Below are positions 36,970 through 64,000 of a stretch of DNA of 64,000 bases, piece after piece. Each line of letters opens with the position of its first letter. Position 1 is the first letter of the stretch. Source of the stretch: Megalonaias nervosa (lineage: Eukaryota; Mollusca; Bivalvia; Unionida; Unionidae); contig JAECUM010010977.1 of NCBI GenBank assembly GCA_016617855.1, positions 62,001 through 126,000 on the forward strand, written 5' to 3'. A program made the position numbers and the translations under genes. The notes under the pieces are model-generated. The model was given only the letters and a program-made list of their open reading frames with translations. It ran no database searches and was not told the origin of the DNA.

Positions 36970-37482
36970 ATTAAACAGCTATTATAAATATTATCAATAA
37001 TGAATATTGGAAAACCACACTCAAGCTAAATTAGCTCGAGAGCGACTAGAGGCAATTTAAAAATATTTACCTGTCCGTGATTCTGTCAAGCAACAACTAC
37101 AATCACGTCAGGAATCTCAAGTTGAATTTGAAGAGGATAGAAAACAATTATTTAAACCTATTACAGAGACCACTAAAAGTCTTCTTCCAACGTTAGAGAA
37201 GACCGCTGAAGCAACTGGAAAAATAGCAGAAAGAACTAAGAAAACAAAGAAGATTCTACGAGAACTTCTGACTGAAATAGCTGCCGCGTTACCACCACCG
37301 AATGAACAACCGATTGCAGAACAAGCAAAATTAATAACAGCTAAAAGTAAAATTAGTTTTTTAGATAAGCTTTCCGAAACAGGGATTGAAAAAATTTAAT
37401 CTGTTAAAGACATAGATGAATTAGCTAAACTAGCTGTTAATAGTTATTCAAAACGGAAGGGTTATCTAAAACCCGAATACGG
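36970..37482 (+). pseudogene. element 2 coiled-coil gene, 5' half
   Basis: A plus-strand reading frame, broken by at least two stops (near 37056 and 37399), encodes a charged, helical, coiled-coil-type segment (for example KLARERLEAI, EFEEDRKQLF, TLEKTAEATGKIAERTKKTK). It is the counterpart of the coiled-coil gene of element 1 (50623-51864), which sits next to the ATPase. The frame runs straight into the left end of element 1 at 37482 and resumes at 55121 when one copy of TACGG is discounted. The true start is not identified. Function in Polintons is unknown. Confidence 0.7.
37478..37482. other. target-site duplication, left copy (TACGG)
   Basis: TACGG directly precedes the left terminus of element 1 and is repeated at 55121-55125 directly after the right terminus. 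Polintons usually make 6-bp duplications; here five bases match and the sixth differs. Confidence 0.75.
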
Positions 37483-37486
37483 AGTA

Positions 37487-37526
<40 letters not shown>

Positions 37527-37991
37527 GAGGGTTTGAGCTCAAAAACGGTTTTTAGCCTAGAAAACCCTCGCCCCCTCAAAATAAATATATTATGACATTT
37601 TTTCATCACCTTAGATACCCCCTCTCCATTAAAAAACCACCTTCTTTAAAACCCAAAGAGGATTTTAGCCCAATATATTTTTTTCATATTAAACAAATGA
37701 AATATTATATATAATGTCATTCTCAGTCCGACATGTTGGATTTGATCTGACAAACAGATTTTGTAAGAGATTTAATTCAATCAAATTAGCCTCAAGTTAT
37801 ACTGGTATAAACACTAAAATAATAAGCGATTGTATTTAAAAAAAGTTGGATATCATAAATCACCAAAATATGGGTCAGTTTGGTTATTCGCGACTGAAAA
37901 TGATGTGAGAATAGCGGGTTGGGCAGATGATGTGATGACATTTATTGACAATATGGTTGATATTTTATTTGATAACGATATTACCAAAGCT
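37483..37991. repeat. element 1 left terminal inverted repeat
   Basis: 509 bp, matching the reverse complement of 54643-55120 until the ACCAAAGCT at its inner edge. The terminal AT run (37489-37522) is longer than in the right copy (ATCTATATATACTACT), which explains part of the length difference of 31 bp. Confidence 0.95.
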
Positions 37992-38018
37992 GTAAATATT
38001 TGTTTAAAATCAAAATAA
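37714..38018 (+). pseudogene. small gene inside the left TIR
   Basis: An ATG at 37714 opens ~42 codons (MSFSVRHVGFDLTNRF onward) and ends in TAA near 37840. The next frame then stays open to 38018 (GYHKSPKYGSVWLFATEN, AGWADDVMTFIDNM). The two parts look like one small protein split by a frameshift. The mirror copy in the right TIR (from 54919 down to about 54643) has the same break, with one A fewer in the run. I do not recognise the protein. Confidence 0.45.
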
Positions 38019-38419
38019 TAGTCCCCTTTGAGGACTGTTTCAAGATGATTATATACATATGATTATGATTATATACATATGATTATATACATATGATTAT
38101 GACTATATCTTAATTAAGGACAACACAAAACACAGAATCTTAATTACAGTAGCGTATTTACAGCACAGTTTAACCCCATGTGAAACCCCTAGGTTGCCAA
38201 AGGTCATCCTAGTAGTCTCAGAGGTTATACATAAACTTATCTTATGGACGCATAAACACACACCCCAGCGAATTCCTAATCGAAACGAAATACTAGAAAT
38301 TCAGAGGGCTGTCTAGGCATTATGATTTTATGTAGCCCCTTAAATCAAGCAAGCATACTTACAGTAACGTATTAACATATTTACAGTAACGTATTTACAT
38401 ATATTTATAGGGACAGCAC

Positions 38420-38745
38420 AGTTACATATAAACTTTAACTCTAGGACAGCACAGTTACATATAAACTTATCTTAAGGACAATACTACGGGCCTTCTCTAC
38501 GTTCAACAGAAATTTTTGCACACTCCCCCATCATAATCACCCAGGGAGTGCAAAATTGCACCCACCATGTGACATGGTGGGAAAGTGTACAAATTTTCTA
38601 TTGAAACAATAGACGGGCTAGCTCACGCCCAATAAATAATAAATTTTGGCATCAAATCGCCTTTCGCCCGACAATTGCCGGTCACGAGAATCGAACCACG
38701 GACTTCGAGCATGAAAATCCAACGCGTTAGCAATCGGCCACCGGA
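38420..38745 (-). repeat. tRNA-derived SINE-like insertion in element 1
   Basis: On the minus strand 38745-38676 folds like a tRNA: A box TGGCCGATTGCTAACGCG, B box GGTTCGATTC, and CCGGT/ACCGG closing an acceptor-like stem. The anticodon arm is degenerate. A unique body follows to about 38420, including the palindromic CCACCATGTCACATGGTGG. This looks like a SINE and not a tRNA gene; its ends are approximate. Confidence 0.5.
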
Positions 38746-38854
38746 ATTCATTACATATATATGTTGAAAATGTTATTATATAGTTCCCAAACAGCATTCA
38801 TTTTCCGATTTTAAAAAAACACGTAATTTTACATTATATTATTTAATTCTGAAA

Positions 38855-39111
38855 TAATTATTGTAAATAGAGAAAAAACATAATTTTTGATTTTATGTTG
38901 TACAGAAAAACGAATATTCTAATGCTAGGCTGAAACTATATAAGATCGCCGTTTTTAATTGATACTAACGAGTGGACTGAATGAAATACACAGATGTTAT
39001 ATATATATAAATCAAAGCTAAATTAAAAGATCTAATTCTGAAAACATTATTGTAAATAGAAAAAAAACATAATTTTTGATTTTATGTTGTACAGAAAAAC
39101 TAAATCCTAAT
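38855..39111. repeat. direct repeat pair, ~80 bp
   Basis: ATAATTTTTGATTTTATGTTG and GTACAGAAAAAC with flanks occur at 38855-38933 and 39031-39111, separated by ~100 bp. Confidence 0.8.
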
Positions 39112-39457
39112 GCTTCCCTGAGTTACGAACAACACAATTATCTTTAACAGAAGATCGGCCGTTGCCAAGGATACTGCCTGAATGGCGCATTACTGCAGAA
39201 AAATAATCAATATACTCTGTGTTACGCAGTTAGACTTAAGGGAGAATCTGTAGTAAATATGTTATATCCGTAGGACGAATTTCTAGTTATTTTAACAAAT
39301 ACAGAAATGATACCAGGATTTATAAGTCTTAAAATACTATCAGATTTACAAAATCTATTATATTTCATTAGCAAAATAATACGAAACAGTATATAATGCT
39401 ATAGTTCATTGGAACAGTATTATCTCCCTTTTTAAAAATCAGATATGGTATACAGAG

Positions 39458-39853
39458 TTATATTTCTTGACCAACACATAATGTTTCAACGTTTGATATT
39501 AGGTAAAGCGTGCTATCATGATTATATAGATAGAATTTAATTCTACCAGATACTTTACGGCGACATTCAAATAGTTCTTTCATCGCTATCTTACTGTGAA
39601 GATACTTACTACCTTTTACGTAAACCTTCGACCTATCTAGGTCTATGTTGATTTTTGTATACTGGCATTGACTGATTGGATTATGTAAATTGTTATATTT
39701 TAATGCAAGCTCGTCTCGTAAACTTTCGAGATAACTAAAGTATTTGCTGTCATCTGATTTGATAAGGGAGAGTTTGATTCTGTCAAATTTACTAAAACAA
39801 ATACCTGAAATTTCATCGTTAAATTCAAATGATAATTGTTGGTTATTAACCAT
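39458..39853 (-). CDS. uncharacterised 131-aa protein of element 1
   Basis: Intact frame downstream of PolB on the same strand, 61 bp after it. The protein is soluble-looking and mixed alpha/beta by composition (SFEFNDEISG, LRDELALKYNNL, RRKVSGRIKFYLYNHD), with no transmembrane segment or signal peptide and no motif I recognise. Its survival beside a badly broken PolB, and its position as the last gene before the TIR, are notable. The start ATG follows an A/T-rich leader. Confidence 0.6.
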   Translation of the reverse strand: MVNNQQLSFEFNDEISGICFSKFDRIKLSLIKSDDSKYFSYLESLRDELALKYNNLHNPISQCQYTKINIDLDRSKVYVKGSKYLHSKIAMKELFECRRKVSGRIKFYLYNHDSTLYLISNVETLCVGQEI

Positions 39854-39914
39854 TATTTTTTTTTTATTTTGCTGTTAACTCCATCTGCTAATGTTAAATT
39901 TTTAAACATTATTT

Positions 39915-42900
39915 CTAATGTTTAGAGAAAATTATTTTATAATGTCCAAGCGCTAGTGTGTTAATTCCGTCACTGCAATATATTTTATCATCAAAATTAC
40001 TTAGTCCACGTTTTATGATCATATCAGTTTCAAGTTTATGATGGTTTGTTCTTATGACATTAGTTTTGATAAAACTGATGCTATTGTTTAGCGCTGCTTT
40101 AAAATCGTCAAAATTCATCATCTTTTTCACATATCCTCGAGGAATACCTTTTGCTTTCTTTGTAAGTTTATTGTCATCTAATATGACAGCGTACATTTTG
40201 CTCTTTAGTCCAACAAATTCCCTAACTGGCACAAACATAAACTCATCTTTCATTTTTCCAATAATTTTTTTGTTCGTATTATCTTGAAATCCACTATATG
40301 CTGGATAATCTGATAAATCGAACAGATTTTTATTATTGTAAATATCCTGATAGACATCTTCACATTTTATGTAATAAACTAGCTAGTCCGTATCAGTAAA
40401 TAGCAACTCCGAATCTGGCCACTGCTTTTATGTAAAATTATAGTGAAAATCGTACATCAGCCACTTCGATATATCAAGTACAGCTGCACCAACATATATA
40501 GGTTTATTTAACTTTAAATTTGTCTTTCGTCGCTGTATTGCAACAAGATTTTCATTAAATATTTTCATACTAACAAAACCATCATCGTTAACTAATTTAT
40601 TTCTGCGACTAATATCATTGACAATTTCTATAGAGACCCTCTTTCGAATGTTCTCCATCGTCTTACCGAACACCGAGTTCTTCATTAGCTTGAAAAAGTT
40701 TTTCTCAAATTCGGTTCTAGCCACAGCACCACGTTTTGTATTTAGATCAATATAATTTACCATCCACTTCGACTCATTAAACTTTAACACACGATGTACC
40801 TTTCTCAGAATTAGTCCAGCATCTACTGCTTGTTTTAAATTTTTGTAGTGCATAACATAATTTCTTTTATCCAACAAATTTGGAACTAACTTATTAACAA
40901 TGGAATTTTTTTCTGTCGTCGTTGCTTGTTGTTCAGGCGATAATAAACTATAATTAATCATCATTGACTCTGCGCAAAACGGGTAGTCGTTCTGTAGATC
41001 GTGTAGCCAACTAGGATAATCTAGATCAACTTCAACAAAATATGAGATATCTGAAAAATCGATATTAATTTTTCCAGGCAAATCTTTTTCAGTTTCTCTA
41101 AGAAATTGATCTGGAGTTATCCAATGAAACCCACTGTGTGGCATTGGCTCTGACATGGCCCAGCCATACAAATTCACACAATCTAGATAAATAATATGAT
41201 TAGATGGAAGATTTTTATCATAATTTTTTAAGTACTTGTTATTAGCAGCTGCATATTTTTTTGTTATAACGCTAATTCCGCCACTGATACCTTTTTCAAT
41301 GAAGTTAAACATATCGACATCTGTTAAAAGATCTAGTTCTATTTTGCTCGTTTTTAGTAGAGCGTCCCAAGATAATCCTGGAGCAGAATAATACAAACAG
41401 GGGTCTAATCCATAATTTGTATGACTAACCTGACAAAAACTCTCAAAAACATCTGCAAGCAATAAAACATCTGTTTTCAAATATGGATCATGATAATCAC
41501 CAAATGTTTTACAACTAAATTTATTCCAAATATCTTGCGCATATTTATATTCGTCATCTGTGATATTTTCATTTTTAAGTTGCGAGTAAAATTTATCTTT
41601 GCTAGGTAGAGAAGTTTCATCAAATCTGCTCCAATCGTCGAGATACTCGTAAGGAAATATACCTTTTTTTTGTACGATCGATATAGTTTTCACCGAAGCA
41701 ACTTTTTAGGTTAGCGAAATCGCTGCAACCTTTGACAGGCTCATCTAATGATGCCGCCATAAATTGCAGAGTGTCAATAAAACGTAATTTACCGAGCGTC
41801 ACCGACATATACTTTTCAAAATTATTTGGAATACATTTTGTTACGTTATTTAATTTTAGTTTAGATTTAATTTCCTCATCACCAAATGCTTCAACGATGA
41901 TATGACTATCATAGCCACGAAAGTTATGTAAAACTACGGGAATAAAATCTGGAGCAGGAAATTTTAAATTGCAACCGTTATGAGCTGCTCTACGATATTG
42001 GCCGGTCAAATGACAATGATCTCGCACCTTATCACGTGCTCCGTTAGAATCCACCAGCAACTTTTCACAAATATGACAATCAACTGCTTTATCAAAATCG
42101 AGTTGCTGTTTAGACGTTATTTTTATTGGAGCTGTTTTAAGTAATCTGTTAGAAATTTAATTAACTTCGTCTATTAAATTTTTTAATAGCCATACGGCAG
42201 GATTTTCACCTCTATATAACTTTATCGGAGTTGAAAATTTATCGTTAGCGCAACAAACTACTTTATAAGCTACTCCGCAAGGAATATGCTGTTGTATTTC
42301 TCTAGTACTGGATTTATTCGGATTATTTTCTGCTCCAACCACTGGAACGAGTAGACACTCGAAATCAGCGTAAATAACAAAAGGAATATTTAGTTTATGA
42401 TTATAATTTTTAAATTTTAATATTTTTTCTTTTTCGCTTGGCATACTTATTCTTTGAGCATTGACACAGTATTTGAGATGCTCCTGTAGTCTTCCATCGC
42501 TAGAAAAACCGTGCAAACATCTATAGCAGAAATATTTTTTATTTTTATTTTTACTGTACTGTTTGCCAACTAGGCCGTTAAAGTTTTTTGTCCAGCAATA
42601 ATGTCCTCGATAAAATAATAAATTTATTGTATTTTGCGTAGCATTTTCTGAGATATATCTCAGGAAAATTTTTTCTTTCTCATCTAGTCCGAAAACGTTT
42701 ACTGAGATATTGTTTTGTTTTTCAAGCTTTGGTATATGATTTTCTGCTACTGGAAAAGTTATTCCTAAAAAATTTAATTCGTCCTCGTGCGGAAAATATT
42801 TGTTAACGCGATCAGCATTTTTTTCTTTTGGAAACATCGCAGAAAGAATAGACCATTGAAAACATTTGTCATCATCGTTTTTGACATTTATTCAGCATTT

Positions 42901-43430
42901 TTTGTTTTTAATTTTTTGAGGGAGATCGACGTAGCCAGCGATATTAACGCCGCTGCCGTGAAGTACGTTATATTTTGCTGTGTGAAATAAAACTTCTTTT
43001 ATTATTTCAACTTTCCAACCGGATCCTGACGAAGTAAATTCTTCTAATATTTTGTTTATTTCTTGATGTATTTCATCGGCAACCACGGCAATGTTTGTTC
43101 CAGTTAATATTTTTCTAGATTTTGCTGTTAAATATGGTTCCGAAATTTAGCTGTCAAAACTTTTGTTTCAAAAATTACATCAAGTACATCCTCAACTGCG
43201 TGTAACTTTGATAAAATCGTATGATATTGGACTATAAGTTTGATACTTTTATGAACAGCAAGTTCTCCTGATATAACAGGTTGTAAAAGATGAAATAAAT
43301 TTGTGGAGCTAAAATTTGCTAAAATTTTTTGATCATCAAGTTTGTAACTGTTATCGTAACCAGAAAATGCTGAAGCAATTTTTTCTTATTTGAAAATGTT
43401 CTTTTTAGCAATATCTCGCAATTTTAACAT
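39915..43430 (-). pseudogene. protein-primed family B DNA polymerase of element 1
   Basis: About 1170 codons from ATG 43430. In order: N-terminal region; a zinc-finger-like CYRCLHGFSSDGRLQEHLKYC segment (~42540-42480); exonuclease motif I (YADFECLL); an HNH/zinc-type insert (CHICEKLL, HCHLTGQYR); exonuclease II (HNFRGYDSH); exonuclease III (YHDPYLKTD); polymerase motif A (YLDCVNLYGWAM); motif B (KNSVFGKTMEN); and motif C (LLFTDTD). This is the typical Polinton enzyme that replicates the element. Breaks: TAA 43386-43388, a frameshift near 43145, TGA 42892-42894, TAA 42157-42159, a frameshift in an A8 run at 41664-41671, TAA 40428-40430, and TAG 40383-40385 directly after motif C. It is non-functional. 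Confidence 0.92.
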
Positions 43431-43509
43431 TATATATATAATAATATTTTTATATTTAATTGAATTTTTTAAGATTTTTAATTAGAGATATGAAAAACCT
43501 TATAGTATA

Positions 43510-44331
43510 ATGACAGAAATTTTTAGATATATCGAAATGACGGCGGAAGAGCAAGAAACTTATCATGTACATCCGATGTACAACTTTTATGCTGCAAATA
43601 TTTTAGGTTCTGTTATTAATATAGAATCTAAAAAATCTATCGGCATATCAACACCAGCTGGAATATTAATTTCAGTAAAATGCGATGATGTAGAAAGAAT
43701 TAAAATGTTTCGAAAAGATTTTATTTATACTTTGTTTTGCGGCGATATTCCAGAAGGACAACGAGTATACAGAGCAAATGGCGCAGTTGCTGATGATAAT
43801 ATTGAAAATTTATCATTACAAAATGAATTTCAAACTCATCCAAGATTTGATTTATATGAGGCAAATGATAAAGGAATTATTCGACATATAAAAACAAAAA
43901 AAGATATTGGAAATTTACATGATGCTGGTTATTTACGTATAAATGTTAGAGGAACTAAATCTAACCAAGTTGGTTATTATAATCACCGTTTTCTGTTTGA
44001 AACTTTTAATGGTGGTATTGCAAATAATTTAGTTATCGACCATATAAATAAAATTAAGACCGATAATCGTTTAGAAAATTTAGATCTGGTAACATCAAAA
44101 GAAAATAGTAGAAGAGGAGATGCTGGTAGTAATAACTTTAAAAATCTGGCTAAACAAATAATTTCAATAAATCTAGAAACTGATGAAGAAATGAAATTTA
44201 AATCAATAACAGCTGCTGCAAACCACCTTAAAATTAATCCAAGTGTAGTGAAAAGAGTAGCTGATGGCAGAACTAAATCAGCAACGTCGATGTTGACATT
44301 TGATAGATTTATCTTTAGATACGATAACTAA
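43510..44331 (+). CDS. HNH endonuclease, NUMOD-type
   Basis: An intact 273-aa gene on the strand opposite to its neighbours. The C-terminal half has an HNH nuclease core (YYNHRFLFETFNG, then VIDHINKIKTDNRLENLDLV and SKENSRRG), followed by a NUMOD1/HTH-like DNA-binding segment (FKSITAAANHLKINPSVV). The N-terminal half resembles a second, worn HNH repeat (HPMYNFYAANILGS, NIENLSL). Such proteins cut specific DNA sites and spread as homing or free-standing endonucleases in phages and large DNA viruses. It sits between PolB and a small minus-strand gene, overlapping the latter by 17 bp. Confidence 0.8.
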   Translation: MTEIFRYIEMTAEEQETYHVHPMYNFYAANILGSVINIESKKSIGISTPAGILISVKCDDVERIKMFRKDFIYTLFCGDIPEGQRVYRANGAVADDNIENLSLQNEFQTHPRFDLYEANDKGIIRHIKTKKDIGNLHDAGYLRINVRGTKSNQVGYYNHRFLFETFNGGIANNLVIDHINKIKTDNRLENLDLVTSKENSRRGDAGSNNFKNLAKQIISINLETDEEMKFKSITAAANHLKINPSVVKRVADGRTKSATSMLTFDRFIFRYDN

Positions 44332-44596
44332 TAATATTTTCCAGATCATTCCGAGAAAGACAATTATGACCAAATTCCATAACATCATCGCGATTAAATC
44401 GTAACGTCATCATTTTATTTGTATCAAGTTTTATTTTGTCAGCTGCTGTTAATAAAAATTTGTCAGAATCGCCTAATGTTATCATAACATCAACAAAATA
44501 AAAATTATATCCAAACAAACAAGCTCGAATTGCTTCAGCTAGTTCTTTGTGATTTAATATATTAATTCGCTGATGATATTTTATTTCTCCGAACAT
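44315..44596 (-). CDS. uncharacterised 93-aa protein of element 1
   Basis: Intact small minus-strand frame, mixed charge, no membrane segment (MFGEIKYHQRINILNHKELA, MMTLRFNRDDVMEFGHN). It overlaps the end of the HNH gene tail to tail. I recognise no family. Confidence 0.5.
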   Translation of the reverse strand: MFGEIKYHQRINILNHKELAEAIRACLFGYNFYFVDVMITLGDSDKFLLTAADKIKLDTNKMMTLRFNRDDVMEFGHNCLSRNDLENIISYRI

Positions 44597-44599
44597 CTT

Positions 44600-45093
44600 A
44601 TTATTTATTAATTAGACAAAAGATTATTGTAATACTGAACTTAATTGAGAGACTGGCTGAGCTATATTCGGGAGATTTTGTTTCAGTTTCAAATTTTACA
44701 TCAGAAAATATTACTAATGACAGATTTGCTGATAATACTGAAAAAGATATTTTGTATAACCACGACGACGACGAAGATGATGTTGTCGTTAGTAAAAAAT
44801 TATCTAAGCAGACCAACAACTGGACGATATAATGTTAAGTACCATATTGCTTAAAAAAATATTAAAATTTAATTTTACTGTTGCCCAGCATCAAATATTT
44901 TGGCAACTTATAAAACCCTTTTTAAACGTAAAAATAGCTGGACAACAAAGAAATATAAAATACGATTTTATTTTTGTTAAAATATTTAATTTAATGTCAA
45001 TGGACGGTGCGAGAAAATTACATTTAATTTCTTTATGCAAACCGGTAAAATGTAAGTCAGTACTAATAAAATATGAGGAAAGTTATAATAATA
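44600..45093. other. unassigned stretch in element 1
   Basis: Between the 93-aa gene and the integrase. A plus-strand frame from about 44640 to 44832 encodes an acidic product (GDFVSVSNFTSENI, HDDDEDDVVVSKK), and another plus-strand frame follows to 45167. It may be a broken gene convergent with the integrase. I could not choose between this and chance. Confidence 0.3.
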
Positions 45094-46080
45094 TTATTCT
45101 GTCGATGAAATCGCAGTCGATGATATCGCAGTCGATGAAATTGACTTACTTGGTACCCAACTATTAAATTTATCGCTATACCCTCGCCATTTAACTAAAC
45201 TTTTGTTGCCGCGCTTTTTAATAACTTTTTCAATAACAAATACATCTTGTTCTGTTTTCTGAAGTTCTTGCTCATAAAAACTGCCAGTTATAGGCTCACC
45301 TAATAAATTTTTTAACGAGTATGTAACCGGTATTGTTAAAAGTGCTTTATCAACAACAAATACTTCTTCGCTCCAGTTGTCAGTATAACCTTTTTCAAAT
45401 GTTTTTTTCGTCAAAGAAATTCTAACTTTATCGCCAACTTTAAATTTATGTCGTCGTTACATGTTTTCGTTTGCTAATATTGGATTTGAAATCGCGTACT
45501 TTGGCGACAGTTTAGTGGTTCGATGTTTTGTGTTATTATATTCGTCAACAATTTTCTGTAAATTGTCAATATATTTATTCGTATTTTTAGCTGTCAAATA
45601 CTTGTGGATTTTTTCGTTTAGCGTAAGATTAAATCTTTCGACAATGACACTTTTTCCCTCATTTCCTGTAACATATTTTTTAATGTTATTTTGCTCTAAA
45701 AACTGTTCACATTTTTTATTAAAAAACTCCGCTCCATGATCAGTCCAGATTCTATTTGGTTTTCTTTCTGTGTTAACAACAATTTGTTTGAACGTATCAG
45801 TCATCGATGTCCCTGTTTTATCCGAAACGGGTATACTAAACGCGTATTTGCTAAAAACATCTACAACATTAAAAAATATCTCTTTGGAGCGCCATCAGCG
45901 CCGACGTTATATTCAGCTAGATTTGAAACATCAACTAAGTCTATCGCCCAGATATCATCAACGGCATTTGCGACAACTTTACGTCGCGGAAACTTTTTTT
46001 TTAGGTCTGTGTAGCTCAGTTGCAAGATCATCATATAATTCTCTACCGAGACCAAGTTTATATTTTGCTCCAATAAAACC
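45094..46080 (-). pseudogene. Polinton integrase (DDE, rve) with chromodomain
   Basis: Retroviral-type integrase that would insert the element. Seen in order: KYKLGLGREL near 46065; FPRRKVVANAVDDIWAIDLVD with the first catalytic Asp (~45960); VVDVFSKYAFSIP; TDHGAEF with the second Asp (~45745); VIVERFN with the catalytic Glu (~45640); then GSFYEQELQKTEQDVF and a chromodomain-like VKWRGYSDKFNSWVP near 45170. Breaks: a frameshift in an A9 run (45994-46002), a frameshift in a T run near 45885, and TAA at 45457-45459. A short repeat (SSTAISSTAISST) forms the C-terminus. Confidence 0.9.
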
Positions 46081-46491
46081 CTAGACCAGCCTTCGCTCAA
46101 CACGTTCTCGCATATTTACAGATTTCATATCACGAAGATCGTCTAACATTCCTTTATCGCAGCTGTGTTTATTTTGTTCGCTGTCTGGAAGTTCAATATC
46201 TCTGTAGCAGATATCATAGCGCATTGCTATTGCGTCAACTTGATTGTAAGGTTCTTGTCCTGGCAGCGGATTATCGTTTTCGTCAAGTTGTTTATCAAGA
46301 GGATTATAAGGTCCAGTGTATTTATGGCCTGGCAATGTCCAACCGCCTTTTGGTTTCGGCAATTTTCCAATAAATTTATGTATATCTATACCTGTTCCAA
46401 TTATTTCTCTGTTTTAGCATTTCTGACAATATGTAACAATTTTATTTTGCTCGAGGCATAAATCTCTATCGCAATCGCAGTCGCATGTCAT
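46081..46491 (-). pseudogene. phospholipase A2-like domain, Polinton/parvovirus type
   Basis: Begins MTCDCDCDRDLC (ATG 46491) with a cysteine-rich zinc-ribbon-like head, has TAA at 46414-46416, then a viral PLA2-like domain: calcium-loop-like HKYTGPYNPLDKQL and active-site helix AMRYDICYRD. In the family the active-site helix reads HD; here His is replaced by Tyr, so catalysis is doubtful. In parvoviruses this fold breaches endosomal membranes. The frame ends at TAG 46081-46083, but the next codons in the same frame are integrase N-terminal sequence, so a PLA2-integrase fusion before the stop arose is plausible. Confidence 0.7.
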
Positions 46492-46498
46492 TATTTAT

Positions 46499-46702
46499 TT
46501 AGTCGTCTACTAAAATAATCTCCCTGACAACGTCAGGAGGGTAACCCGCTCCGGACAACTTTGTTTTTGGTAAAAACATACTTTTTTTTCTTCCGCAGAT
46601 TGCACAAATACTTTTCAGCATTATTCTATTATTTTTTGTTTTTTCTGTTTTTTCGTCTTTATTTTCTGTTTTAGTTTTACACTTAAGACAATATGTTCAC
46701 AT
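46499..46702 (-). pseudogene. DUF5679-like zinc ribbon protein
   Basis: A 67-residue frame with a two-knuckle zinc ribbon (YCLKC, then CAICGRKKS) joined by TKNNRIMLKS, which matches the DUF5679 pattern common in large DNA viruses and some animal virus relics. The only ATG in place (46700-46702) is followed at once by TGA, so either the second codon mutated or translation begins elsewhere. Too short to have been listed by length. It lies between the PLA2 gene (7 bp away) and the protease. Confidence 0.65.
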
Positions 46703-46717
46703 TGTTATATTTGTAAT

Positions 46718-47373: not shown

Positions 47374-47398
47374 TATATTTATCCATCATATAAAATTG

Positions 47399-47797: not shown

Positions 47798-47816
47798 CTT
47801 ATATAACGATTACAGA

Positions 47817-49324: not shown

Positions 49325-49411
49325 AAATTTCTGCTAAATCGAGATAATTTTTTACAGACATTTTTTTTATTTATTAGGTTATACAAAATTTTGTCATCAA
49401 TGATAGCGAAG

Positions 49412-49777: not shown

Positions 49778-49839
49778 TATATCTGAGGTTGCATAATTTC
49801 ATTTCGTAATCTTTTAGAAAATATGTTTATTGTTCGCGC

Positions 49840-50600: not shown

Positions 50601-50622
50601 TTATTATTATATTTTTATAAAA

Positions 50623-51864: not shown

Positions 51865-51890
51865 TAATTATATACTATTTTGTATAAAAA

Positions 51891-52568: not shown

Positions 52569-52619
52569 TATTGTTATATAATTTTATGCTATATAATTTT
52601 GTCAAACGATAAAGAAATA
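52569..52619. promoter_or_regulatory. divergent ATPase/fibre promoter region
   Basis: Fifty-one AT-rich bases separate the two start codons. TATATAAT (52575-52582) and TATATAATTT (52591-52600) could serve as TATA-like boxes. No further element can be named. Confidence 0.35.
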
Positions 52620-54065: not shown

Positions 54066-54133
54066 GTTAATTATAATAAATCAAACCCATGGACAATTCT
54101 ATTGTATAAAATATGTAAACAAATATTATATAA

Positions 54134-54634
54134 ATGAAAAAACATATAGTTGATTTCAATCATATTACAGAAAAAATTCCAAAACAAGATGTGGAAGCTC
54201 TAATGCAATATTACAGATATTATCATAAAAAACTTTGGTGCGAGAAAAAATGTTACAAATGCTATAACAGAATACTTCGAATGATATCATATTTGCCACT
54301 GTTAATGACTAGCTCTGGTATAATTTAAAGTGGAGCATCATTAAATCCGTTTTTGTTAATAATAATTGGTGTCGTCGTTTCTCTTGCAACAGCGTGTAAA
54401 AAAATTAAACCTCGTCTTGCGACTACAAAAAATGCTTGTAAAATAGCAAGTATCACATATTAAAAATTACTTGATCAAATACGATCTTATTTGCGGGGTA
54501 TAAAATATGATATGGATGATTTAATACGCGAGTTCCGTATTATTGACAGTATGTTAACAGATATTCTGCCAATGAGAGTCAGCAGATATGAAAAAGATTA
54601 TCGTAAAATATGGGTTACAACAGTAGATGTTTAA
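54134..54634 (+). pseudogene. small membrane protein of element 1
   Basis: A 166-codon frame with TAA at 54326-54328 and 54461-54463. The middle is hydrophobic with two transmembrane-like runs (MISYLPLLMTSSGI and PFLLIIIGVVVSLATA) around a polar turn. The N-terminus has a YYRYYHKKLWCEKKCYKC segment and the C-terminus is helical and charged. It directly follows the fibre gene, as the 169-aa membrane protein does in element 2. Family unknown; a virion or exit protein is possible. Confidence 0.6.
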
Positions 54635-54642
54635 TTTTATAT

Positions 54643-55120
54643 AGCTTTGGTAATATCGTTATCAAATAAAATATCAACCATATTGTCAATAAATGTCATC
54701 ACATCATCTGCCCAACCCGCTATTCTCACATCATTTTCAGTCGCGAATAACCAAACTGACCCATATTTTGGTGATATATGATATCCAACATTTTTAAATA
54801 CAATCGCTTATTATTTTAGTGTTTATACCAGTATAACTTGAGGCTAATTTGATTGAATTAAATCTCTTACAAAATCTGTTTGTCAGATCAAATCCAACAT
54901 GTCGGATTGAGAATGGCATTATATATAATATTTCATTTGTTTAATATGAAAAAATATATTGGGCTAAAATCCTCTTTGGGTTTAAAAGAAGATGGTTTGT
55001 TAATGGAGAGGGGGTATCTAAGGTGAAGAAAAAATGTCATAATATATTTATTTTGAGGGGGTGAGGGTTTTCTAGACTAAAACCGTCTTTGAGCTCAAAC
55101 CCTCATCTATATATACTACT
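54643..55120. repeat. element 1 right terminal inverted repeat
   Basis: 478 bp, the inverted counterpart of 37483-37991. It includes the mirror copy of the small TIR gene (ATG at 54919 on the minus strand). Confidence 0.95.
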
Positions 55121-55125
55121 TACGG
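55121..55125. other. target-site duplication, right copy (TACGG)
   Basis: Matches 37478-37482. Counting only one copy, the coiled-coil frame of element 2 continues without a shift. Confidence 0.75.
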
Positions 55126-55762
55126 CGGTGAATATATAAATGATGAAAATTGGGAAAAGTGGTTATATCGTGTGTACACTGGTAAAAAACGAATTCGACG
55201 TAATGATGAAAAATATCCTATCTATATTGGTAGTATAAACAAATATAAATCATCGAAATTACTTCCAGAACGACAAATCGAAATTGGAGCGTTAGAAAGA
55301 ATGTTTGAACAGGGAGGAGCAGGGAAAACAGAACAAAAACGAGAAGAAGAGAGAATGTTGGAACAAGAAAAAGAACGGAGAAAAAAACAACGAGAGGAAT
55401 ATGAGAAAAAACGAGAGGAGGTAAAAGTACGGAAAGAGAAGCAGGAAGCAGAACGCCAAAGAAAACTAGAAGAACTTAGAGGAAGATTATCTTTATCGCC
55501 TGGAGATGAAGATTCATTCGGCGCAATTGGAAGTGGTTTTACTACTCAAGGAAGTGGTCTTATTGCTTGTCCAAACAACGTCCTTGCCGATGTTGAACGA
55601 TTAGAAATTCTGATTGGCGGAAAACGAGCTGGTAATAATTCCCCAGAAATAATTAATGAAGCAGCTGATATTTGTAAACGATTATTTACAGGCGGTATCA
55701 TGGATATTAATGTGTATCGATCCCTCATTAATGAAATCGCCGATGACTACCACAGTGATTAA
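55126..55762 (+). pseudogene. element 2 coiled-coil gene, 3' half
   Basis: An open frame from the insertion point. It starts with a Lys/Arg-rich stretch (VYTGKKRIRRNDEKYPIYIG), continues as a long charged coiled coil (REEERMLEQEKERRKKQREE) and a Gly-rich linker, and ends in a helical bundle (NNSPEIINEAADICKRLF) homologous to the end of the element 1 gene. The 3' half itself has no stop; the gene is dead because of the 17.6-kb insertion and the stops in its 5' half. Confidence 0.75.
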
Positions 55763-56360: not shown

Positions 56361-57723
56361 ATGTTCAAACGTATATCTGATCATGCATTCGTTATGGACG
56401 CACCAGTACTCAAGGATGTGTCTGTGCGTGATTATCAATATTATTCTTATGACGCACGAATTACAGATCAGCGTGGACGAATTAACTTCAAGTTCAAGAT
56501 ACAAGCAGATATTTCTTACCTGCCGAGGCATTTATTGAAGTCGAAGGTGAGATTATAAAAACAGATAATACTGAATACGCCGCTGATGTTAGTGTTGGTT
56601 TTGTTAATAATCGTATTATGGCGTTATTTGACGGCGCTACGTACATGATTGATGGAAAAAATATTGAATCAGTTCAAAGGGACGTTGATGTTGCTATGAC
56701 AATACTTGGTCTTGCAAGATACAGTGATGATTATTCAAGATCAACTGGTCCATCAATGATGTTTGTGAAAGATACTTCTAACTCTCCAGAGTACCAACAA
56801 TATGAAATAGGACAAACAAGAAATTTTGCCAGAAACGCCAACGTGGATGTACAAAGTATGATTATTAATATAGATCCGGATTTCAACTTAGGATTTAGAT
56901 CACGTTGAGCAATGTTACAGGGTAACAGAAGAGCATTTTCATGTTCAATTCCACTGTCACATATCTTTGGGTTCTGTAGAAATGTTAGAAAAGTCATTTT
57001 CGGAACTAAGCATACAGTTGTACTTGTACGAAAAGCAACCGATAATGATGCAATATGGCGACCCGCTGGTGATGCTGGTAAAGTAATTCTTACAAAACTT
57101 TCATTGTGGATGCCAGTAATGACTCCATCAATATCTGAAGTAGATCGGTTACTTGCTTTCATGGGCAGCAGCGGTAAATCGATGTTATCATGGTTAACAA
57201 TGACCACGGATGCTATCCAGAGTAATATTAATGGTTTATTTACATGGCAAATAGCTTCTCAGCAGGATGTTACTGCACCGCGACATCTATTTATTGCATT
57301 TCAAGATGCTGCACGGGTAAATGATCAAACGCATAGTATTATGATATTTTACAATCTTGGTGTTTCCGAGATTTCGTTGAGAATAAATGGACATCAAGAA
57401 CCACCCGAGGATATTTTATTGAATTTCGAGCACGTGCATATCACCGTCTGATGACATTCATGGGGCGTGATCAAAATGTTGATACTGGTTTACAAATATC
57501 ACAGTTAGATTTTACAACCTTATATCCAATTTATTACTTTTCACTGGAACATTTAGATTTATTCAGACAATCTGTTGTTGACATACATTTTCGAGCTCGT
57601 GTGACAATAGGAGCCATTGCTAATTATAGGGCAATCGCTGTTATACTCAGCGATAAATCAATGTTACTTGAAGGTGTTGGTGGTCGCATGAGAGTAGTTG
57701 ATGCTCCACTAGAAAACATGTAA
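56361..57723 (+). pseudogene. major capsid protein of element 2
   Basis: About 450 codons in three frames: 56361-56558, 56519-57450 and 57400-57723, with a single TGA at 56906-56908. It has the same landmarks as the element 1 MCP (YSDDYSRSTGPSMMFVKDT; IPLSHIFGFCRNVRKVIFG, KHTVVL; TKLSLWMP; FTWQIASQQD; LYPIYYFSLEH) but low overall identity, and it lacks the Ala-rich loop. The two MCPs therefore come from clearly different lineages. Confidence 0.85.
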
Positions 57724-58113: not shown

Positions 58114-58168
58114 ATAAAAACCTCCAAAAAAAGGGGAGGGGTCTAAGATTGCCAGGGGCCCCATATTC

Positions 58169-58633
58169 ATGGTACGGAAAGGGTCTAAGACTTCCCGGGA
58201 CAGTTCATTGATTCTGCCTATGTCCAATTTTGATTTACTTGATGCTGCTAAAAAATTAAAAATAAAAAAATTCAGAGGCGTTTTTATGCGTGATCAATTA
58301 CCAAAAGAACCAAACAATATTGAAACTGGCATTATTAATTTCGATAAAAACTCTGGCCGTGGCACTCATTGGGTTGGATATGCAATTGATCCACGTGGAA
58401 TAATTTATTTTGATTCATATGGACTAGCACCACCAAAGGAATTTTTAAAATATGTTAGCAGCATGCAAAGTATTCCAATCTGGTATTCAACGCTACCAAC
58501 ACAAACATTAACTGATCCGCCAATATGTGGTCATGAAGTACTCGCTGTACTTGATACTGTATCAAAATCAACAAAACCACCTCATAAAGTCGTGCATGAA
58601 TATACTACGTTGTCACATTTAAATAGACATTAG
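58169..58633 (+). CDS. adenovirus-type cysteine protease of element 2
   Basis: Intact, 154 aa. Catalytic His in RGTHWVGYAID, Asp in IYFDSYG, Cys in DPPICGHEVL. The N-terminal FDLLDAAKKLKIKKFRGVFM matches the element 1 enzyme, but the Lys/Thr-rich tail found there is absent. It begins 55 bp after the PX gene and is followed at once by the fibre gene. Confidence 0.88.
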   Translation: MVRKGSKTSRDSSLILPMSNFDLLDAAKKLKIKKFRGVFMRDQLPKEPNNIETGIINFDKNSGRGTHWVGYAIDPRGIIYFDSYGLAPPKEFLKYVSSMQSIPIWYSTLPTQTLTDPPICGHEVLAVLDTVSKSTKPPHKVVHEYTTLSHLNRH

Positions 58634-58641
58634 TAAATATA

Positions 58642-59712
58642 ATGGTAGATATTTACGGAAGATCTTCTCGTGGTAAAGCTCAGCAGCAGGGTGATTTATC
58701 TAAATATGCAACTCTTGACCATCTCAGAAATGAAATCGATGATTTATTAAACATTACAAGTGTGGATCAAAATGAAGTTGTTGTTTTTCAGGATAAATAA
58801 GGACGATTAAAGACAAGTAATATACAACTACCAGATGTACTCATACAAATTCCTACCGCGGTTGTTAATAATATCGTTACTTTTACTGATCAAGGTAAAA
58901 TACAAGATTCCGGTAAGTCAGTCAAAGATTATATTAAGAAAGCTGGCGAATCATTCACGGGTTACATTATCATGAATCGAAATAAAATTATAGACCTTGG
59001 AAACCCAGCCGCAGATACAGACGTCGCAACAAAAAAAAATATGTCGATGATCAAGAATCTAAGTACGTATTAGTCAACGGCGGTATAATGCGTGCATTTC
59101 TCAACATGAACAACAACGGCATTAATAATCTTAGAACACCAGAATCTGATTTTGATGCTGCAACAAAGAAATACGTCGATGATAAGGAAATTCCAATAAC
59201 AACTTCGTTAAAAACAATCGGTGATGAAATGACTACACTCAATGCTACTTTTCTACACATGTAGAAACGTTTTTAAATTTTCGTAGAAATATAAACAAAC
59301 CCATTAAAGATTTTTTTGGGGAACAACCAACCGTTGATATCAAACTCTCCGACATTAACATAAAACTAAACGATATTGTCAGTGGAATACCTAAATTGTT
59401 CAAAAAACGAATCTGATTAAAATTCCACATGGACAAATTAAAAATATCGTGTACACGGTAGCATCAGGATCATCAACATGGACACCGCAAAGTAAAACTC
59501 TCGAACATACCGCAGAAGTAACTGGGTTATACAGGCTGTCCATGTACGGTTTGGAAATTACTGCGGCCACTTCATCATCACCGAATGTATATCATAATCC
59601 TCTACTGGTGATGCTAAATAAGAACACCAAAGAAATATTTACGTTGACATCAACGGAAATGCCCCCGAAACGTTACTGGTGGTTTCTGGAATTCGTAGCT
59701 GAAACTCCTTAA
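58642..59712 (+). pseudogene. fibre protein with phage-tail-type repeats, element 2
   Basis: ATG 58642 opens a unique N-terminus (DIYGRSSRGKAQQQGD), then TAA at 58798-58800. Two repeats remain (NRNKIIDLGNPAADTD and NNNGINNLRTPESDFDAATK), followed by a slender region and the same C-terminal head (YTVASGSSTWTPQ, HTAEVTGLYRLSMYG). Frameshifts lie in the A9 run at 59032-59040 and near 59260-59405. The stretch 59043-59185 is about 90% identical to 53107-53250 of element 1, with most differences at third codon positions. The N-terminus, which should anchor the fibre to the capsid, differs from that of element 1. Confidence 0.72.
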
Positions 59713-59736: not shown

Positions 59737-60246
59737 ATGAATCAAAACCAAGGACCACAGTCCTACATCGACGTTCAACGTCACAGATACAGTCAAATAT
59801 GTAAGTGTCAGACTGAACTAAAAAATATTATTGACGATTATACACTAAAAGTAAAAAAATATCGCAGACGTTTGGTTGTCATTGATATAATTGTTTACTC
59901 AGTTTCTGCTATTATTGCTGGAACCGGATTATTATTATCGACAATAACAATGACGGCGCCTGCAGTTGTAACAATTAACGTTTCAACTTCAACGACTATC
60001 GCAAGCATTCTCAGTATTATCGCTAAGAAGATATCTGCATGTACAAATACTAAATTACACGAGTATATAATAAAATTACATACAGCAACAACGACGTATT
60101 CTAAACTATCGTCATATATTTCTTCGTACCTCAGCGATGGTAAAATATCTGATGAGGAGTTCGCAACGATAATGAAAACCTATGATGAAGCATTCCTTGA
60201 CAATAGCCAAGGCGAAAGGGCGGAGGATCAAAAATTCCCGATTTAA
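59737..60246 (+). CDS. small membrane protein of element 2
   Basis: Intact, 169 aa. A helical, Cys-containing N-terminus (HRYSQICKCQTELK) and a basic KVKKYRRRL precede two transmembrane-like segments (VVIDIIVYSVSAIIAGTGLL and a Thr/Ile/Val-rich one), then a helical tail (ISSYLSDGKISDEEFATIM). Layout and position after the fibre match 54134-54634, although the sequences differ. Confidence 0.65.
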   Translation: MNQNQGPQSYIDVQRHRYSQICKCQTELKNIIDDYTLKVKKYRRRLVVIDIIVYSVSAIIAGTGLLLSTITMTAPAVVTINVSTSTTIASILSIIAKKISACTNTKLHEYIIKLHTATTTYSKLSSYISSYLSDGKISDEEFATIMKTYDEAFLDNSQGERAEDQKFPI

Positions 60247-60265
60247 AATAATAACAATAATAATA

Positions 60266-60849
60266 ATGTCAACGTCCTTGACTGAGTCAAGAGAATTACT
60301 TCAACAGATCGTCTCTAATACAGCACCGTCAAAAACTACTATGATATCATTAAGTTCGACCAATCCTGAGTTTAGCGTTAACTTTCCAACAGCAATTCCT
60401 GCAAAAGAAATAGCATTAGCGCAATTACGAGTTTATCATAGCTTTCCAAATATTAGATCAAAACCATTTGGTGGACTGCAACCGAATAATTCATTAGTAT
60501 TTGCAAATAAGAATAAGCCTGATGGAACTCCTGATTGGCAAGTAGTTAGTATTCCAACGGGTAGTTATCAAATAGAACAAATCAACGATGAGTTCCAACG
60601 CAGAATTAAATCTATTACAGGTAAAGAATCAAAAATAGCAATTACTGTTTGTTTATTTATTTATTTATTTCAATAACCGCTGATAATGTTGTATCAGCGG
60701 TTATTGAAATAAATTCTCCTGATTATTCTGTAGATATTTATCAAAGTTCGATTAGATCAGTACTAGGCTGGCCTGAAGTTGCGCCAGTTTATCAAGGACC
60801 ACCAGAACCACAACGATCTGATTTCGTTACAGATATCAAAAATTTATAA
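60266..60849 (+). pseudogene. minor capsid (penton-type) protein of element 2
   Basis: ATG 60266 begins a penton-type protein (FSVNFPTAIPAKEIALAQL, VYHSFPNI, SIPTGSYQIEQINDEFQ). The frame is broken by a short templated insertion at about 60645-60684 that ends the first frame at 60676; the remainder (NVVSAVIEINSPDYSVDI, SVLGWPEVAPVYQGPP) reads in another frame to 60849. Counterpart of 49840-50600, weakly similar. Confidence 0.75.
60663..60714. repeat. perfect 22-bp hairpin inside the minor capsid gene
   Basis: Left arm 60663-60684 (ATTTATTTCAATAACCGCTG plus AT) is the exact reverse complement of 60693-60714, with an 8-nt loop. The right arm belongs to the coding sequence; the left arm looks copied from it. 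Confidence 0.9.
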
Positions 60850-60881
60850 AAACACCAGAATACCGAAAAACTTATCCATTT

Positions 60882-63800
60882 ATGGAGAATCCGGCTTATG
60901 CTGGTTATAAACATTATACTCATTTTATAGATTTCATTGATGGTAAGAAAGGTACAACAAGAATAGCAACAATTAACGTCGAAGAAATTAACTCAAAATC
61001 TAGTCCAATCAAATCTGAACATGAACGTGTACTTAATGATCTAAGAAATTTATTTTCCAGCGTCAACACTTTTTATGACGATGATTTAAAAAATCAGATA
61101 ATTGAAACAATACAACATTTGAATCAAGTTGCATCAGACTTAGAATATGCAAATAAGGCCATCGTTGACAGAGAAAAAACATTAAACGTACCAGTAGATA
61201 GATTTTTTAATAGTTATATAGTTAATGAAGACGGCCCAACTCAACGTGTAAGTCATAAACGTCTATTTAAAACAGTATTTCTTAAACATTATGGAATTAC
61301 AGAAGAACAGCTACCAACATTTTTAATTCCGGGATTTAACTCTGAAGAGCTAAAGAAATCAGTTAATGATCTTATCAATAATAAATCCAAACCCGGAGTA
61401 CTCACTGGTATTGACAAACCATATTATGAACGAGAGTACCCTGTGACTGCGGTTGTCTATGCAATATATCCGCTGAATAATAAACCTAACGTTACGGATC
61501 TCAAATCGATGAGACTGTCAGAATCAAGAATAAACTGTGTAGCTGAACGAGTTACAGAACACTTCGCAAACGCCATACGTGGTAATGGTTTAACAGATTT
61601 ACGACGTAAAAAAATAAATACATGGGCAGAAGCAGTTAAAGATACTGGAGCGTCTATTAAAGATGTTGCTGAGCTGGGAAAGATATTAAAATTTCCAATA
61701 ACAGTGAAGACATTAACCGGAGAGATTTTGTATAAATCGAAATATGAATCAAGAGGAACTTCGATAGACATTATTGATCATAACGCACATGCATGGACTA
61801 TGTCAGTAACAATATTTCCACGAGACAGAACGGTCAAATTTTTATGATGGTTATATATTTGATTTTATCAGGAATATCAGTAAAAGTGACCCTGTGTCTG
61901 TTTGGTTGTTTCAAAGTTCAGAGTATGATTATTATGATCAGTTTGTACGGCCCGGTGGTGACATTTATCGTACAGAATCTCTTCATGGAGAAATGAAAAA
62001 TCTTGCGCTGAAATATACTTCTGACGATGTCAAGGTTGGACAATTACTAAATAACTGTTTTACCGTTCCCTCAGTTGCTGCTCATGCTGCTCAGGAGAAA
62101 AATTCATGGAAACCGACACGATTGGAATTTCTTGAAGATGTCCAGAAAAGTTGTATTGAATATGGGCACGGTGGATTATGGAATACTAAATACAAGTATA
62201 GCGACGTTATCTCCGTTGATATGGTAGCGTGTTATCCTGGAAGTTTTTTTGGATACGGAGAATGTTCTAAATACTTTAAGAGATTTGGACATCCATCACA
62301 TGAGATGACCAGAGTTGCGATAAACGGACCCTTACCAGATTTTGACCTGACTGGATTCGCCTATATAGAATCATTCGAGTTTACAGAAAATCTCCATCGA
62401 TCACTTATGCTTGGTTTGGAAAACATTTTTCAGAAAAATGTTGGGTTCCAATAGTACTATTACGATATATGCTCGATGCTGAAATTTTAATATCATCAAA
62501 GGTAAATGAAGTGATTATATCGTATCGTCCACAGAAGCAAGTTTGGTTACCAGAACCGGATAGATTTAATATTGATGATGCCAGGAAAGAATTTCCTGAT
62601 CTTAACGAGGAGGGTATTGTTAAAATATATAAATACAGGAAAGAAAGCGATGAGAAACTTGCAAAAGATCTTGGTAGAAAGATAATCGGTAAATTTACAC
62701 AAGGAGGATCATATAACCATAAACGACACTGTACAAGATTAATTATGGACGATGCTGAACTTGATTTTATAATCGCTGATACATCGGAAAAAATACATTT
62801 ATAAACCGATGTAATGCTTATTTATCAGACGGGACCAAACTAGGTACAATTGTGAGCTATATTGATGGTGACTCACCGCAGCTTACTCATTTAAGATCTT
62901 CGATGCTAGCCTACGTTTCGATAAATCTACTGTCTATGATAAATAGATTTCCTCGTTACGCTGTCAGAGTTGCTACGGATTCGTTTTATATAAATAAAAA
63001 ATATACGGATTTGTTAAAACCGCTACTTGGCAATGGTGAATGGGGATCATGGAGAATAAAACAAGAAAATATACTCAGTTATTCTGAATCTGCCGACGTT
63101 GAAATTAAGGAAATATATTACAAAAATAATCAAATATCAGAATTGTCATCAGCACCATCTGTACATGATCCTGTGGCTAGACATAAGACTGTTTATCTTA
63201 ATGGATGTGGTGGTTCAGGTAAAACAACTCGTGCGATTAAATTATTCCTGAACAACCATTCAGATATAATTGTTTTGACACCGACACATAAACTCGCCAG
63301 AGAAATAAAAGAACGAGGAGTAAAATCATGTACATGTCATAGTTTCTTCAGATGGTGCGGAGACACATGGACTTCTGAGCGAATGGGCGAGAAATATATG
63401 CCTAAGTATATTATCTGGGACGAGATAGACACGGTACCGTTAGAAATATTAAAAATATTGCTTGAATGGTTATTGACTAAAAAGACTGCTGTAATTATGT
63501 GTGGCGATCATGGTCAACCACCACCCCTCGTCGGTCAATCTCCTCATGAATGGTTAAAATCATTTGTAGATTACTACGAAGAAATAACTGATGATCATAG
63601 AGCTATTGATGAACCTCTGAAAGAGTTTAAAAGGTTAATAAGACTACAGCCAGAAGAAAAAATACAGTGTGAGATAATACGTAAATTAATTCCAGAAACT
63701 TCTATGAACGATTTTTGGACTTTATGGAGACCTGCTGATTTGATAGTCGCAAGTAGAAAAATAAGTTCGTGATGAACTTCAAGAGAAATTATTTACGTTA

Positions 63801-64000
63801 CATAAAGAAAAGTTTTCAAATCTACCTGTACCATTATGTTATCGCCCAGCAGATACTCGACGACAGAATATTGAAGTTAAGATTCGTGGTGGTGGAATAC
63901 AAAATCTTGTCTTGAATGATATTGTTCTGGTTGCTGTTGGTGTTGTTGAGAGTGCGTTGAGCATGGATAAATCTCCGTGGACGTTAGGATACGCTATAAC
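60882..64000 (+). pseudogene. family B DNA polymerase joined to an SF1 helicase (element 2)
   Basis: Seen in order: a 321-codon N-terminal part (60882-61847: YPVTAVVYAIYPLNN, RRKKINTWAEAV, IDHNAHAW); polymerase motif A (SVDMVACYPGSF, ~62220); a motif-B-equivalent region (SPQLTHLRSSMLAYVSINLL, ~62875-62935); and motif C (VRVATDSFYI, ~62970). In the same open frame (62852-63772) an SF1 helicase follows: Walker A NGCGGSGKTTR (~63205), motif Ia LTPTHKLA, motif II IIWDEID and motif III CGDHGQPPPL. The helicase runs off the window edge. I see no clear 3'-5' exonuclease DxE motif. Frameshifts: ~61846, ~62435, ~62805 and ~63760. This is not the polymerase type of element 1. Confidence 0.8.

What the first reader, a model, noticed from the sequence alone, without database searches (positions are those of the whole stretch)
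36970..64000. One Polinton inserted in another, inside the homologous gene
Element 1 (37483-55120) has ~0.5-kb inverted termini and is flanked by TACGG on both sides. The flanking sequences are the two halves of one coiled-coil gene of element 2, and the reading frame is continuous across the join when one TACGG is left out. Element 1 has its own copy of this gene (50623-51864). The nesting gives a relative age (element 2 is older) and a clean record of integration.
Basis: partly seen in the sequence, partly recalled or inferred. Interest (0 to 1): 0.88.

Follow-up and report, generated by a model that had tools for sequence, protein, structure and literature searches.

The report
Virus-like element nested inside another
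A 17.6-kb virus-derived mobile element (a Polinton) has pasted itself into a gene of an older, related virus-like element, leaving a textbook insertion scar; the nesting itself is ordinary, while a fibre-like gene shared by the two is the more interesting part.

Summary
The insertion is real. Element 1 (37483-55120) begins AGTAGT and ends ACTACT, has near-identical inverted termini (468 of 486 aligned columns) and is flanked by TACGG on both sides. Leaving out one TACGG joins the flanks in one reading frame. Tested apart, the left flank resembles the N-terminal and the right flank the C-terminal part of element 1's own coiled-coil gene; the left match is modest and tblastn misses the right one. 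Best explanation: integration of element 1 by its rve-chromodomain integrase into an element already present.

Corrections. (1) Element 2, as far as visible, has a Polinton-type capsid but a replication protein that reads as an OTU-palm-SF1-helicase fusion, as in Polinton-like viruses; the helicase is profile-supported, the rest motif-based. (2) Element 2 is truncated at 36966 and its right end lies outside the window. (3) Both coiled-coil copies are broken, and hitting the homologous gene is compatible with chance (12% of visible element 2).

Further: blastn between the elements matches mainly the fibre module (77-86% DNA identity), while capsids are 30-44% alike in protein: probable fibre sharing between two lineages. 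The own-genome search for an empty allele did not complete.

The parts
37483..55120 (.). Element 1: decayed Polinton/Maverick (adintovirus-like), 17.6 kb, ends AGTAGT...ACTACT
   Evidence: gene content
37483..38000 (+). left terminal inverted repeat of element 1 (aligned part 37516-38000)
54633..55120 (-). right terminal inverted repeat of element 1 (aligned part 54633-55115)
37478..37482 (.). target-site duplication TACGG, left copy
55121..55125 (.). target-site duplication TACGG, right copy
37000..37482 (+). element 2 coiled-coil gene, left (N-terminal) part, with two in-frame stops and an ATG in another frame
55126..55762 (+). element 2 coiled-coil gene, right (C-terminal) part, open
50623..51864 (-). 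element 1 homologue of the coiled-coil gene, split by a stop and a frame change
45094..45894 (-). element 1 integrase: rve core (45460-45894) and chromodomain (45097-45456), same frame, split by an in-frame stop
   Evidence: PF00665 1.6e-11, PF00385 7.9e-07; frames
39915..42891 (-). element 1 protein-primed PolB in pieces (motifs by recall; Endonuclease_VII-like stretch inside, just below Pfam's cut-off)
   Evidence: no polymerase family matched in Pfam or NCBIfam
43486..44331 (+). element 1 HNH endonuclease with NUMOD1-like part, homing-endonuclease type
   Evidence: (PF13392 2.4e-17)
46081..46413 (-). element 1 phospholipase A2-like
   Evidence: PF08398 1.3e-09
46912..47385 (-). element 1 maturation protease candidate
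   Evidence: tblastn to element 2 58175-58456, E 6e-12
47817..49333 (-). element 1 major capsid protein, double jelly roll, in pieces
   Evidence: PF21738 1e-07
50115..50600 (-). element 1 penton/minor-capsid candidate
   Evidence: similar to element 2 60176-60673, 0 of 500 shuffles; name by recall
51891..52583 (-). element 1 A32-type packaging ATPase
   Evidence: Pox_A32 5.9e-07
52560..54065 (+). element 1 fibre gene(s), phage tail-fibre-like repeats
56486..57723 (+). element 2 major capsid protein, in pieces
   Evidence: PF21738 9.2e-17; tblastn to element 1
58118..58633 (+). element 2 maturation protease candidate
   Evidence: Peptidase_C5 E 0.011 only
58801..59712 (+). element 2 fibre gene, parts 77-86% identical in DNA to element 1's
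60176..60676 (+). element 2 penton/minor-capsid candidate
   Evidence: name by recall
60822..63772 (+). element 2 replication protein in pieces: OTU-like motifs (Cys 61533, His 61776), palm motif A 62218, motif C 62969, SF1 helicase motifs 63203-63500; the last palm motif and the helicase share one open frame 62780-63772
   Evidence: (AAA_19 6.1e-13); palm and OTU by motif only
36683..36966 (.). 284-bp unit with about 28-bp inverted ends directly left of the truncated end of element 2

Best explanation
A Polinton/Maverick (element 1) was integrated by its own rve-type integrase into a coiled-coil gene of an already present, related element (element 2). Staggered cutting by 5 bp at TACGG and repair left one copy on each side. 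Both then decayed. Shown: termini, duplication, frame restored at the join, likeness of each half to the matching part of element 1's own gene. Inferred: that the integrase encoded by element 1 did it; that element 2 was chromosomal at that time; that the chromodomain helped to steer the insertion into silenced chromatin. Element 2 is best described as a mosaic: Maverick-type virion genes with a Polinton-like-virus type polymerase-helicase. The two lineages exchanged or share a fibre module.
For: Exact ends AGTAGT/ACTACT, the (AGT)2//(ACT)2 end-motif listed for vertebrate Mavericks in PMC8097293 (passage). 5-bp duplication; mavirus and Maverick-Polintons give 5-6 bp according to PMC8547959 (passage). 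Inverted termini 468 of 486 columns. Frame continuity. Likeness of each half apart. rve and chromodomain, A32 ATPase, double-jelly-roll capsid in element 1. Capsid of the same family and SF1 helicase in element 2.
Against: Duplication is 5 bp where 6 is usual for rve integrases in this group (PMC12220804 and PMC8097293, passages). N-terminal likeness of the coiled-coil halves is modest (score 60 against shuffle maximum 58; tblastn E 0.16 or 3e-4 by setting) and tblastn misses the C-terminal one. No uninterrupted relative of element 2 was found: four viral-contig scans gave none, and the own genome could not be searched. Element 2's left end is missing.
Confidence: 0.9

Rival explanations
1. 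Element 1 entered the element 2 gene by recombination between the homologous coiled-coil genes, not by integrase.
For: The two elements do carry homologous genes there.
Against: No blastn match of either half of the interrupted gene to element 1 at E 1e-3; element 1 keeps its own copy in its interior; precise termini and a target duplication.
Confidence: 0.02
2. Element 1 integrated into element 2 while element 2 was an extrachromosomal viral genome, and both entered the chromosome together.
For: Nothing in the window dates element 2's own entry; its left end is missing.
Against: Would need packaging or transfer of at least 27 kb as one unit (inference); integrases of this type usually act on chromosomal DNA (general knowledge).
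Confidence: 0.06
3. One or both junctions are assembly joins.
For: No reads were available; a TA repeat sits at the left end.
Against: A false join would not be expected to give a 5-bp duplication, matching ends and a restored frame together. Open frames of 751 and 762 codons of LINE type in the same window argue against generally poor sequence.
Confidence: 0.03
4. The fibre likeness arose by gene conversion between the two neighbouring copies after nesting, not by exchange between live viruses.
For: Same orientation and about 5.7 kb apart.
Against: Difference is skewed to silent sites: dN/dS 0.20 (bootstrap 95% 0.12-0.33) over 150 codons in three blocks, and 0.29 (0.17-0.52) over the 100 codons outside the repeats, which suits divergence under selection. 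A further block that compares a second repeat of element 1 with the same element 2 stretch gives 0.63 (0.29-1.34).
Confidence: 0.15

Closest known systems
Polinton/Maverick, adintoviruses (Adintoviridae)
   Same: Element 1: rve integrase with C-terminal chromodomain, A32 ATPase, double-jelly-roll capsid, inverted termini about 0.5 kb, AGTAGT ends, duplication within the 5-6 bp range.
   Different: Duplication 5 and not 6 bp; an HNH endonuclease gene and a phage-like fibre module; genes broken. PolB seen by motif only.
Polinton-like viruses with Tlr1-like helicase (Tlr1, TvV-S1) and transpovirons
   Same: Element 2 replication protein order: OTU-like motifs, palm motifs, then SF1 helicase in the same frame; only about 440 bases lie between the OTU-like His and palm motif A, too little for an exonuclease domain (inference). 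This order is described for these groups in PMC11071308 and PMC12721341.
   Different: Element 2 carries a capsid module alignable with the Maverick one beside it, and sits in what looks like an animal genome; palm and OTU not confirmed by profile or fold.
Retrotransposons nested in PLVs or virophages (cryptophyte PLVs, Tyrannomonas regina PLVs, Cafeteria EMALEs)
   Same: Mobile element nested in an integrated virus, sometimes inside a gene (PMC12220804, PMC12747079, PMC8547959, passages).
   Different: Here the inserted element is itself a virus-like DNA element of the same broad group as its target.

Membership tests
Polinton/Maverick (element 1) | retroviral-type integrase | tested here: met
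   PF00665 1.6e-11; PF00385 chromodomain 7.9e-07 in the same frame after an in-frame stop
Polinton/Maverick (element 1) | protein-primed DNA polymerase B | tested here: inconclusive
   motifs readable (recalled motifs) but no polymerase family matched in Pfam or NCBIfam and no PDB match for the largest piece
Polinton/Maverick (element 1) | double-jelly-roll capsid protein and packaging ATPase | tested here: met
   PF21738 1e-07; Pox_A32 5.9e-07
Polinton/Maverick (element 1) | terminal inverted repeats and short target duplication | tested here: met
   5 bp, not 6
Polinton/Maverick (element 2) | retroviral-type integrase | tested here: inconclusive
   no integrase match among the pieces scanned and no tblastn match of element 1's integrase, but the element is cut on both sides
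Polinton/Maverick (element 2) | double-jelly-roll capsid protein | tested here: met
   PF21738 9.2e-17
Polinton/Maverick (element 2) | terminal inverted repeats and target duplication | tested here: inconclusive
   no element gene found left of 36967; right end outside the window
Polinton-like virus with Tlr1-like helicase (element 2) | SF1 helicase | tested here: met
   AAA_19 6.1e-13, AAA_30 2.4e-09, both above cut-off; RecD2 model 1.1e-08, below its curated cut-off
Polinton-like virus with Tlr1-like helicase (element 2) | pPolB palm fused upstream of the helicase, OTU domain before it | tested here: inconclusive
   motif strings in place and palm motif C in the helicase frame; no polymerase or OTU profile match, no usable model (mean pLDDT 34)

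The most novel reading that the evidence does not exclude
Two virus lineages with different replication machines (a true Polinton and a Tlr1-type polymerase-helicase element carrying a Maverick-type capsid) lived in the same animal host and traded a fibre (attachment) module; one then integrated into the other, so the locus preserves both the exchange and the order of arrival.
Probability: 0.45. Interest if true: 0.62.

Novelty: new member of a known kind. Interest (0 to 1): 0.42.

Why it matters
Nested insertions order events without a molecular clock. If element 2 is a mosaic of a Maverick capsid and a Polinton-like-virus replication protein in an animal, it narrows the gap between two groups that are usually kept apart. 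A fibre module that is far more alike than the capsid points to sharing of attachment genes between lineages with a common host.

Tried and rejected
Homology-driven insertion: rejected (no blastn match of either half to element 1). A 6-bp duplication: not present in register; a 6-bp duplication with one base lost on the right cannot be excluded. Element 2 genes left of 36967: none by tblastn of 44 element protein pieces over the whole window at E 0.01.

Pairs that did not match or only weakly: element 1 49415-49798 against the element 2 gene after the coiled-coil gene, best frame 4 of 500 shuffles (z 3.1), other rows 28, 398 and 37 of 500; element 1 49843-50145 against 60500-60830 in three frames, 228, 300 and 117 of 500.

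Relatives: phages collection, no match; viral-contig scans with the coiled-coil right half, element 2 capsid, element 1 ATPase and element 2 palm-helicase frame, no relative; with the element 1 fibre, one weak 31% match on a 70-kb contig (L001), not pursued. Structure models of the fibre open frame and of the palm-helicase open frame were poor (mean pLDDT 32.5 and 34.2), so no fold search was made. PDB searches of three replication pieces: none.

Own slips: the left half was in a wrong frame (replaced); the 'tail' row was out of frame (replaced); the N-terminal coiled-coil query of element 1 was out of frame (repeated); the first fibre block included 17 codons read in a shifted frame and one element 2 stretch was used twice, giving 0.36 over 237 codons (replaced); the DNA comparison left out the left half of the interrupted gene (added).
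Full report
Observation. The finding's coordinates are correct to the base. Element 1 spans 37483-55120 and begins AGTAGTATATA and ends TATATACTACT, with TACGG directly outside both ends. Its terminal repeats align over 486 columns with 468 identities, 14 mismatches and 4 gap columns, K2P 0.030. A TA run is 36 bases long at the left end and 8 at the right. The end motif (AGT)2//(ACT)2 is one of two listed for vertebrate Mavericks in PMC8097293 (passage read). PMC8547959 states 5-6 bp duplications for mavirus and Maverick-Polintons (passage); 6 bp is the number given in PMC8097293 and, as typical, in PMC12220804 (passages).

The interrupted gene. Joined with one TACGG the left frame reads into the right open frame; with both copies it does not. 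That alone has a chance of about one in three. The stronger evidence is likeness to element 1's coiled-coil gene, tested on the pieces apart: the left half matches its N-terminal piece (score 60, 0 of 500 shuffles as high, shuffle maximum 58), and the C-terminal 90 residues of the right half match its C-terminal piece (score 71, 0 of 500, z 10.4). The right half also resembles the coiled-coil middle piece (2 of 500 shuffles as high), which may be composition. The stretch right of the join matches none of the three pieces. Against this reading: tblastn at E 0.01 listed no coiled-coil match; repeated in frame, the left half finds element 1's 51844-51506 with E 0.16 with composition correction and 3e-4 without, and the right half finds no C-terminal match at E 1 in either setting. 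Both copies are broken: two stops in the left half and an ATG in another frame, a stop and a frame change in element 1's copy. So the frame is continuous at the join, not throughout the gene.

Element 1. It carries an rve integrase core and a chromodomain, A32 ATPase and double-jelly-roll capsid, phospholipase A2 and an HNH endonuclease, a protease candidate, PolB pieces known by recalled motifs only, and a fibre module with phage tail-fibre matches. This is the Polinton/Maverick set; adintoviruses are defined by rve integrase with chromodomain, OTU-bearing PolB and a hexon (PMC11071296, section 16 read). Several genes are split by stops or frame changes, so it looks like a fossil.

Element 2. 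Visible parts are 36967-37482 and 55126-64000. Its capsid is of the same family (PF21738 9.2e-17) and alignable with element 1's (30-44% identity in pieces). Protease, the small gene after the capsid (0 of 500 shuffles) and the penton candidate (0 of 500) are also similar; the gene after the coiled-coil gene is doubtful (4 of 500 in the best frame). Its replication protein differs. The open frame 62780-63772 holds a polymerase-palm motif C-like string at 62969 followed by SF1 helicase motifs at 63203-63500, the helicase supported by Pfam. Upstream lie a motif A-like string (62218) and Cys and His strings that look like an OTU protease (61533, 61776). PMC11071308 (passages and section 10 read) describes that order, N-terminal domains, OTU, palm without exonuclease, SF1 helicase, for the Tlr1-like helicase of Polinton-like viruses and transpovirons; PMC12721341 (abstract, sections 15 and 20) describes polymerase-then-helicase without exonuclease for Tlr1 too. 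The palm and OTU assignments here rest on motifs and recall: profile searches and a structure model (mean pLDDT 34) did not confirm them.

Limits of element 2. No element gene is found left of 36967 (tblastn of 44 pieces over the whole window), and a 284-bp unit with inverted ends (36683-36966) abuts the truncated end. Its right end is beyond the window. Whether it has an integrase, and how it entered, is unknown.

Does it matter that the homologous gene was hit? The gene is 1,120 of 9,391 visible bases, 12%. blastn finds no DNA match of either half to element 1 at E 1e-3. Chance suffices. A chromodomain could steer integration to silenced repeats; the paper on that (Gao et al. 2008) was seen only as an entry in a reference list, and the idea is untested here.

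Fibre module. A blastn of element 1 against 55126-64000 at E 1e-3 gave five matches: four in or at the end of the fibre module and one of 58 columns in the protease. The two longest fibre matches are 77% over 571 and 86% over 207 columns. Over 150 codons in three ungapped blocks dS is 0.62 and dN 0.13, ratio 0.20 (bootstrap 95% 0.12-0.33); the 100 codons outside the repeats give 0.29 (0.17-0.52); a second repeat of element 1 against the same element 2 stretch gives 0.63 (0.29-1.34) (an earlier run, with a partly misplaced block gave 0.36 over 237 codons). Capsids of the same pair are 30-44% identical in protein. Fibres usually change faster than capsids (general knowledge), so exchange or a later common origin of this module is the simplest reading.

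Host. LINE-type frames with endonuclease and reverse transcriptase and a SAM-domain frame whose PDB matches include ANKS1B and ARAP2 point to an animal genome; no call names the organism.

Literature. Nested retrotransposons in PLVs and virophages are known (PMC12220804, PMC12747079, PMC8547959, passages). A Polinton inserted in a Polinton or PLV did not show in the titles and abstract starts listed (17 of 17 papers listed; 20 of 63; 15 of 149); these are open-licence papers only and supplementary files were not read. A Tlr1-like helicase element in an animal did not show in the listings (15 of 2,256; 2 of 2; 15 of 29), nor in the passages I read of PMC7805220 and PMC10120064; two papers likely to tell (PMC5499653, PMC11426020) and the adintovirus paper (PMC8502044) were not held. 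This is weak evidence of absence.

Verdict. A confirmed nested insertion with a clear order: a new example of a known kind. The mosaic nature of element 2 and the shared fibre raise its interest, but the first rests on motifs and both need the rest of the genome.

Noticed in passing
53054-53111 and 58980-59037: At the same poly-A stretch of the fibre gene the run length differs between element 1's first copy, its second copy and element 2, so the reading frame changes at the same place in both elements; slippage, decay, or frameshifting during expression could explain it.
   Followed up: partly
37840-38001 and 54633-54790: The inner part of element 1's terminal repeats holds a short coding-like stretch, nearly identical in both copies.
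   Followed up: no
36683-36966: 284-bp unit with about 28-bp inverted ends (93% over 28 columns) directly at the truncated left end of element 2, possibly a small non-autonomous transposon.
   Followed up: partly
36426-36496 and 36578-36652: Two direct copies of a unit of about 75 bp, 76% alike, just left of that unit.
   Followed up: no
43486-44331: HNH endonuclease with NUMOD1-like part, similar to phage HNH families, encoded on the opposite strand next to the PolB pieces of element 1.
   Followed up: partly
59713-60246 and 54060-54640: A small gene follows the fibre in both elements (score 65, 0 of 500 shuffles in one of three frames), so the shared module may be larger than the fibre itself.
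   Followed up: partly
9840-12095 and 27589-29877: Two long open frames of LINE-type retrotransposons, endonuclease plus reverse transcriptase.
   Followed up: no
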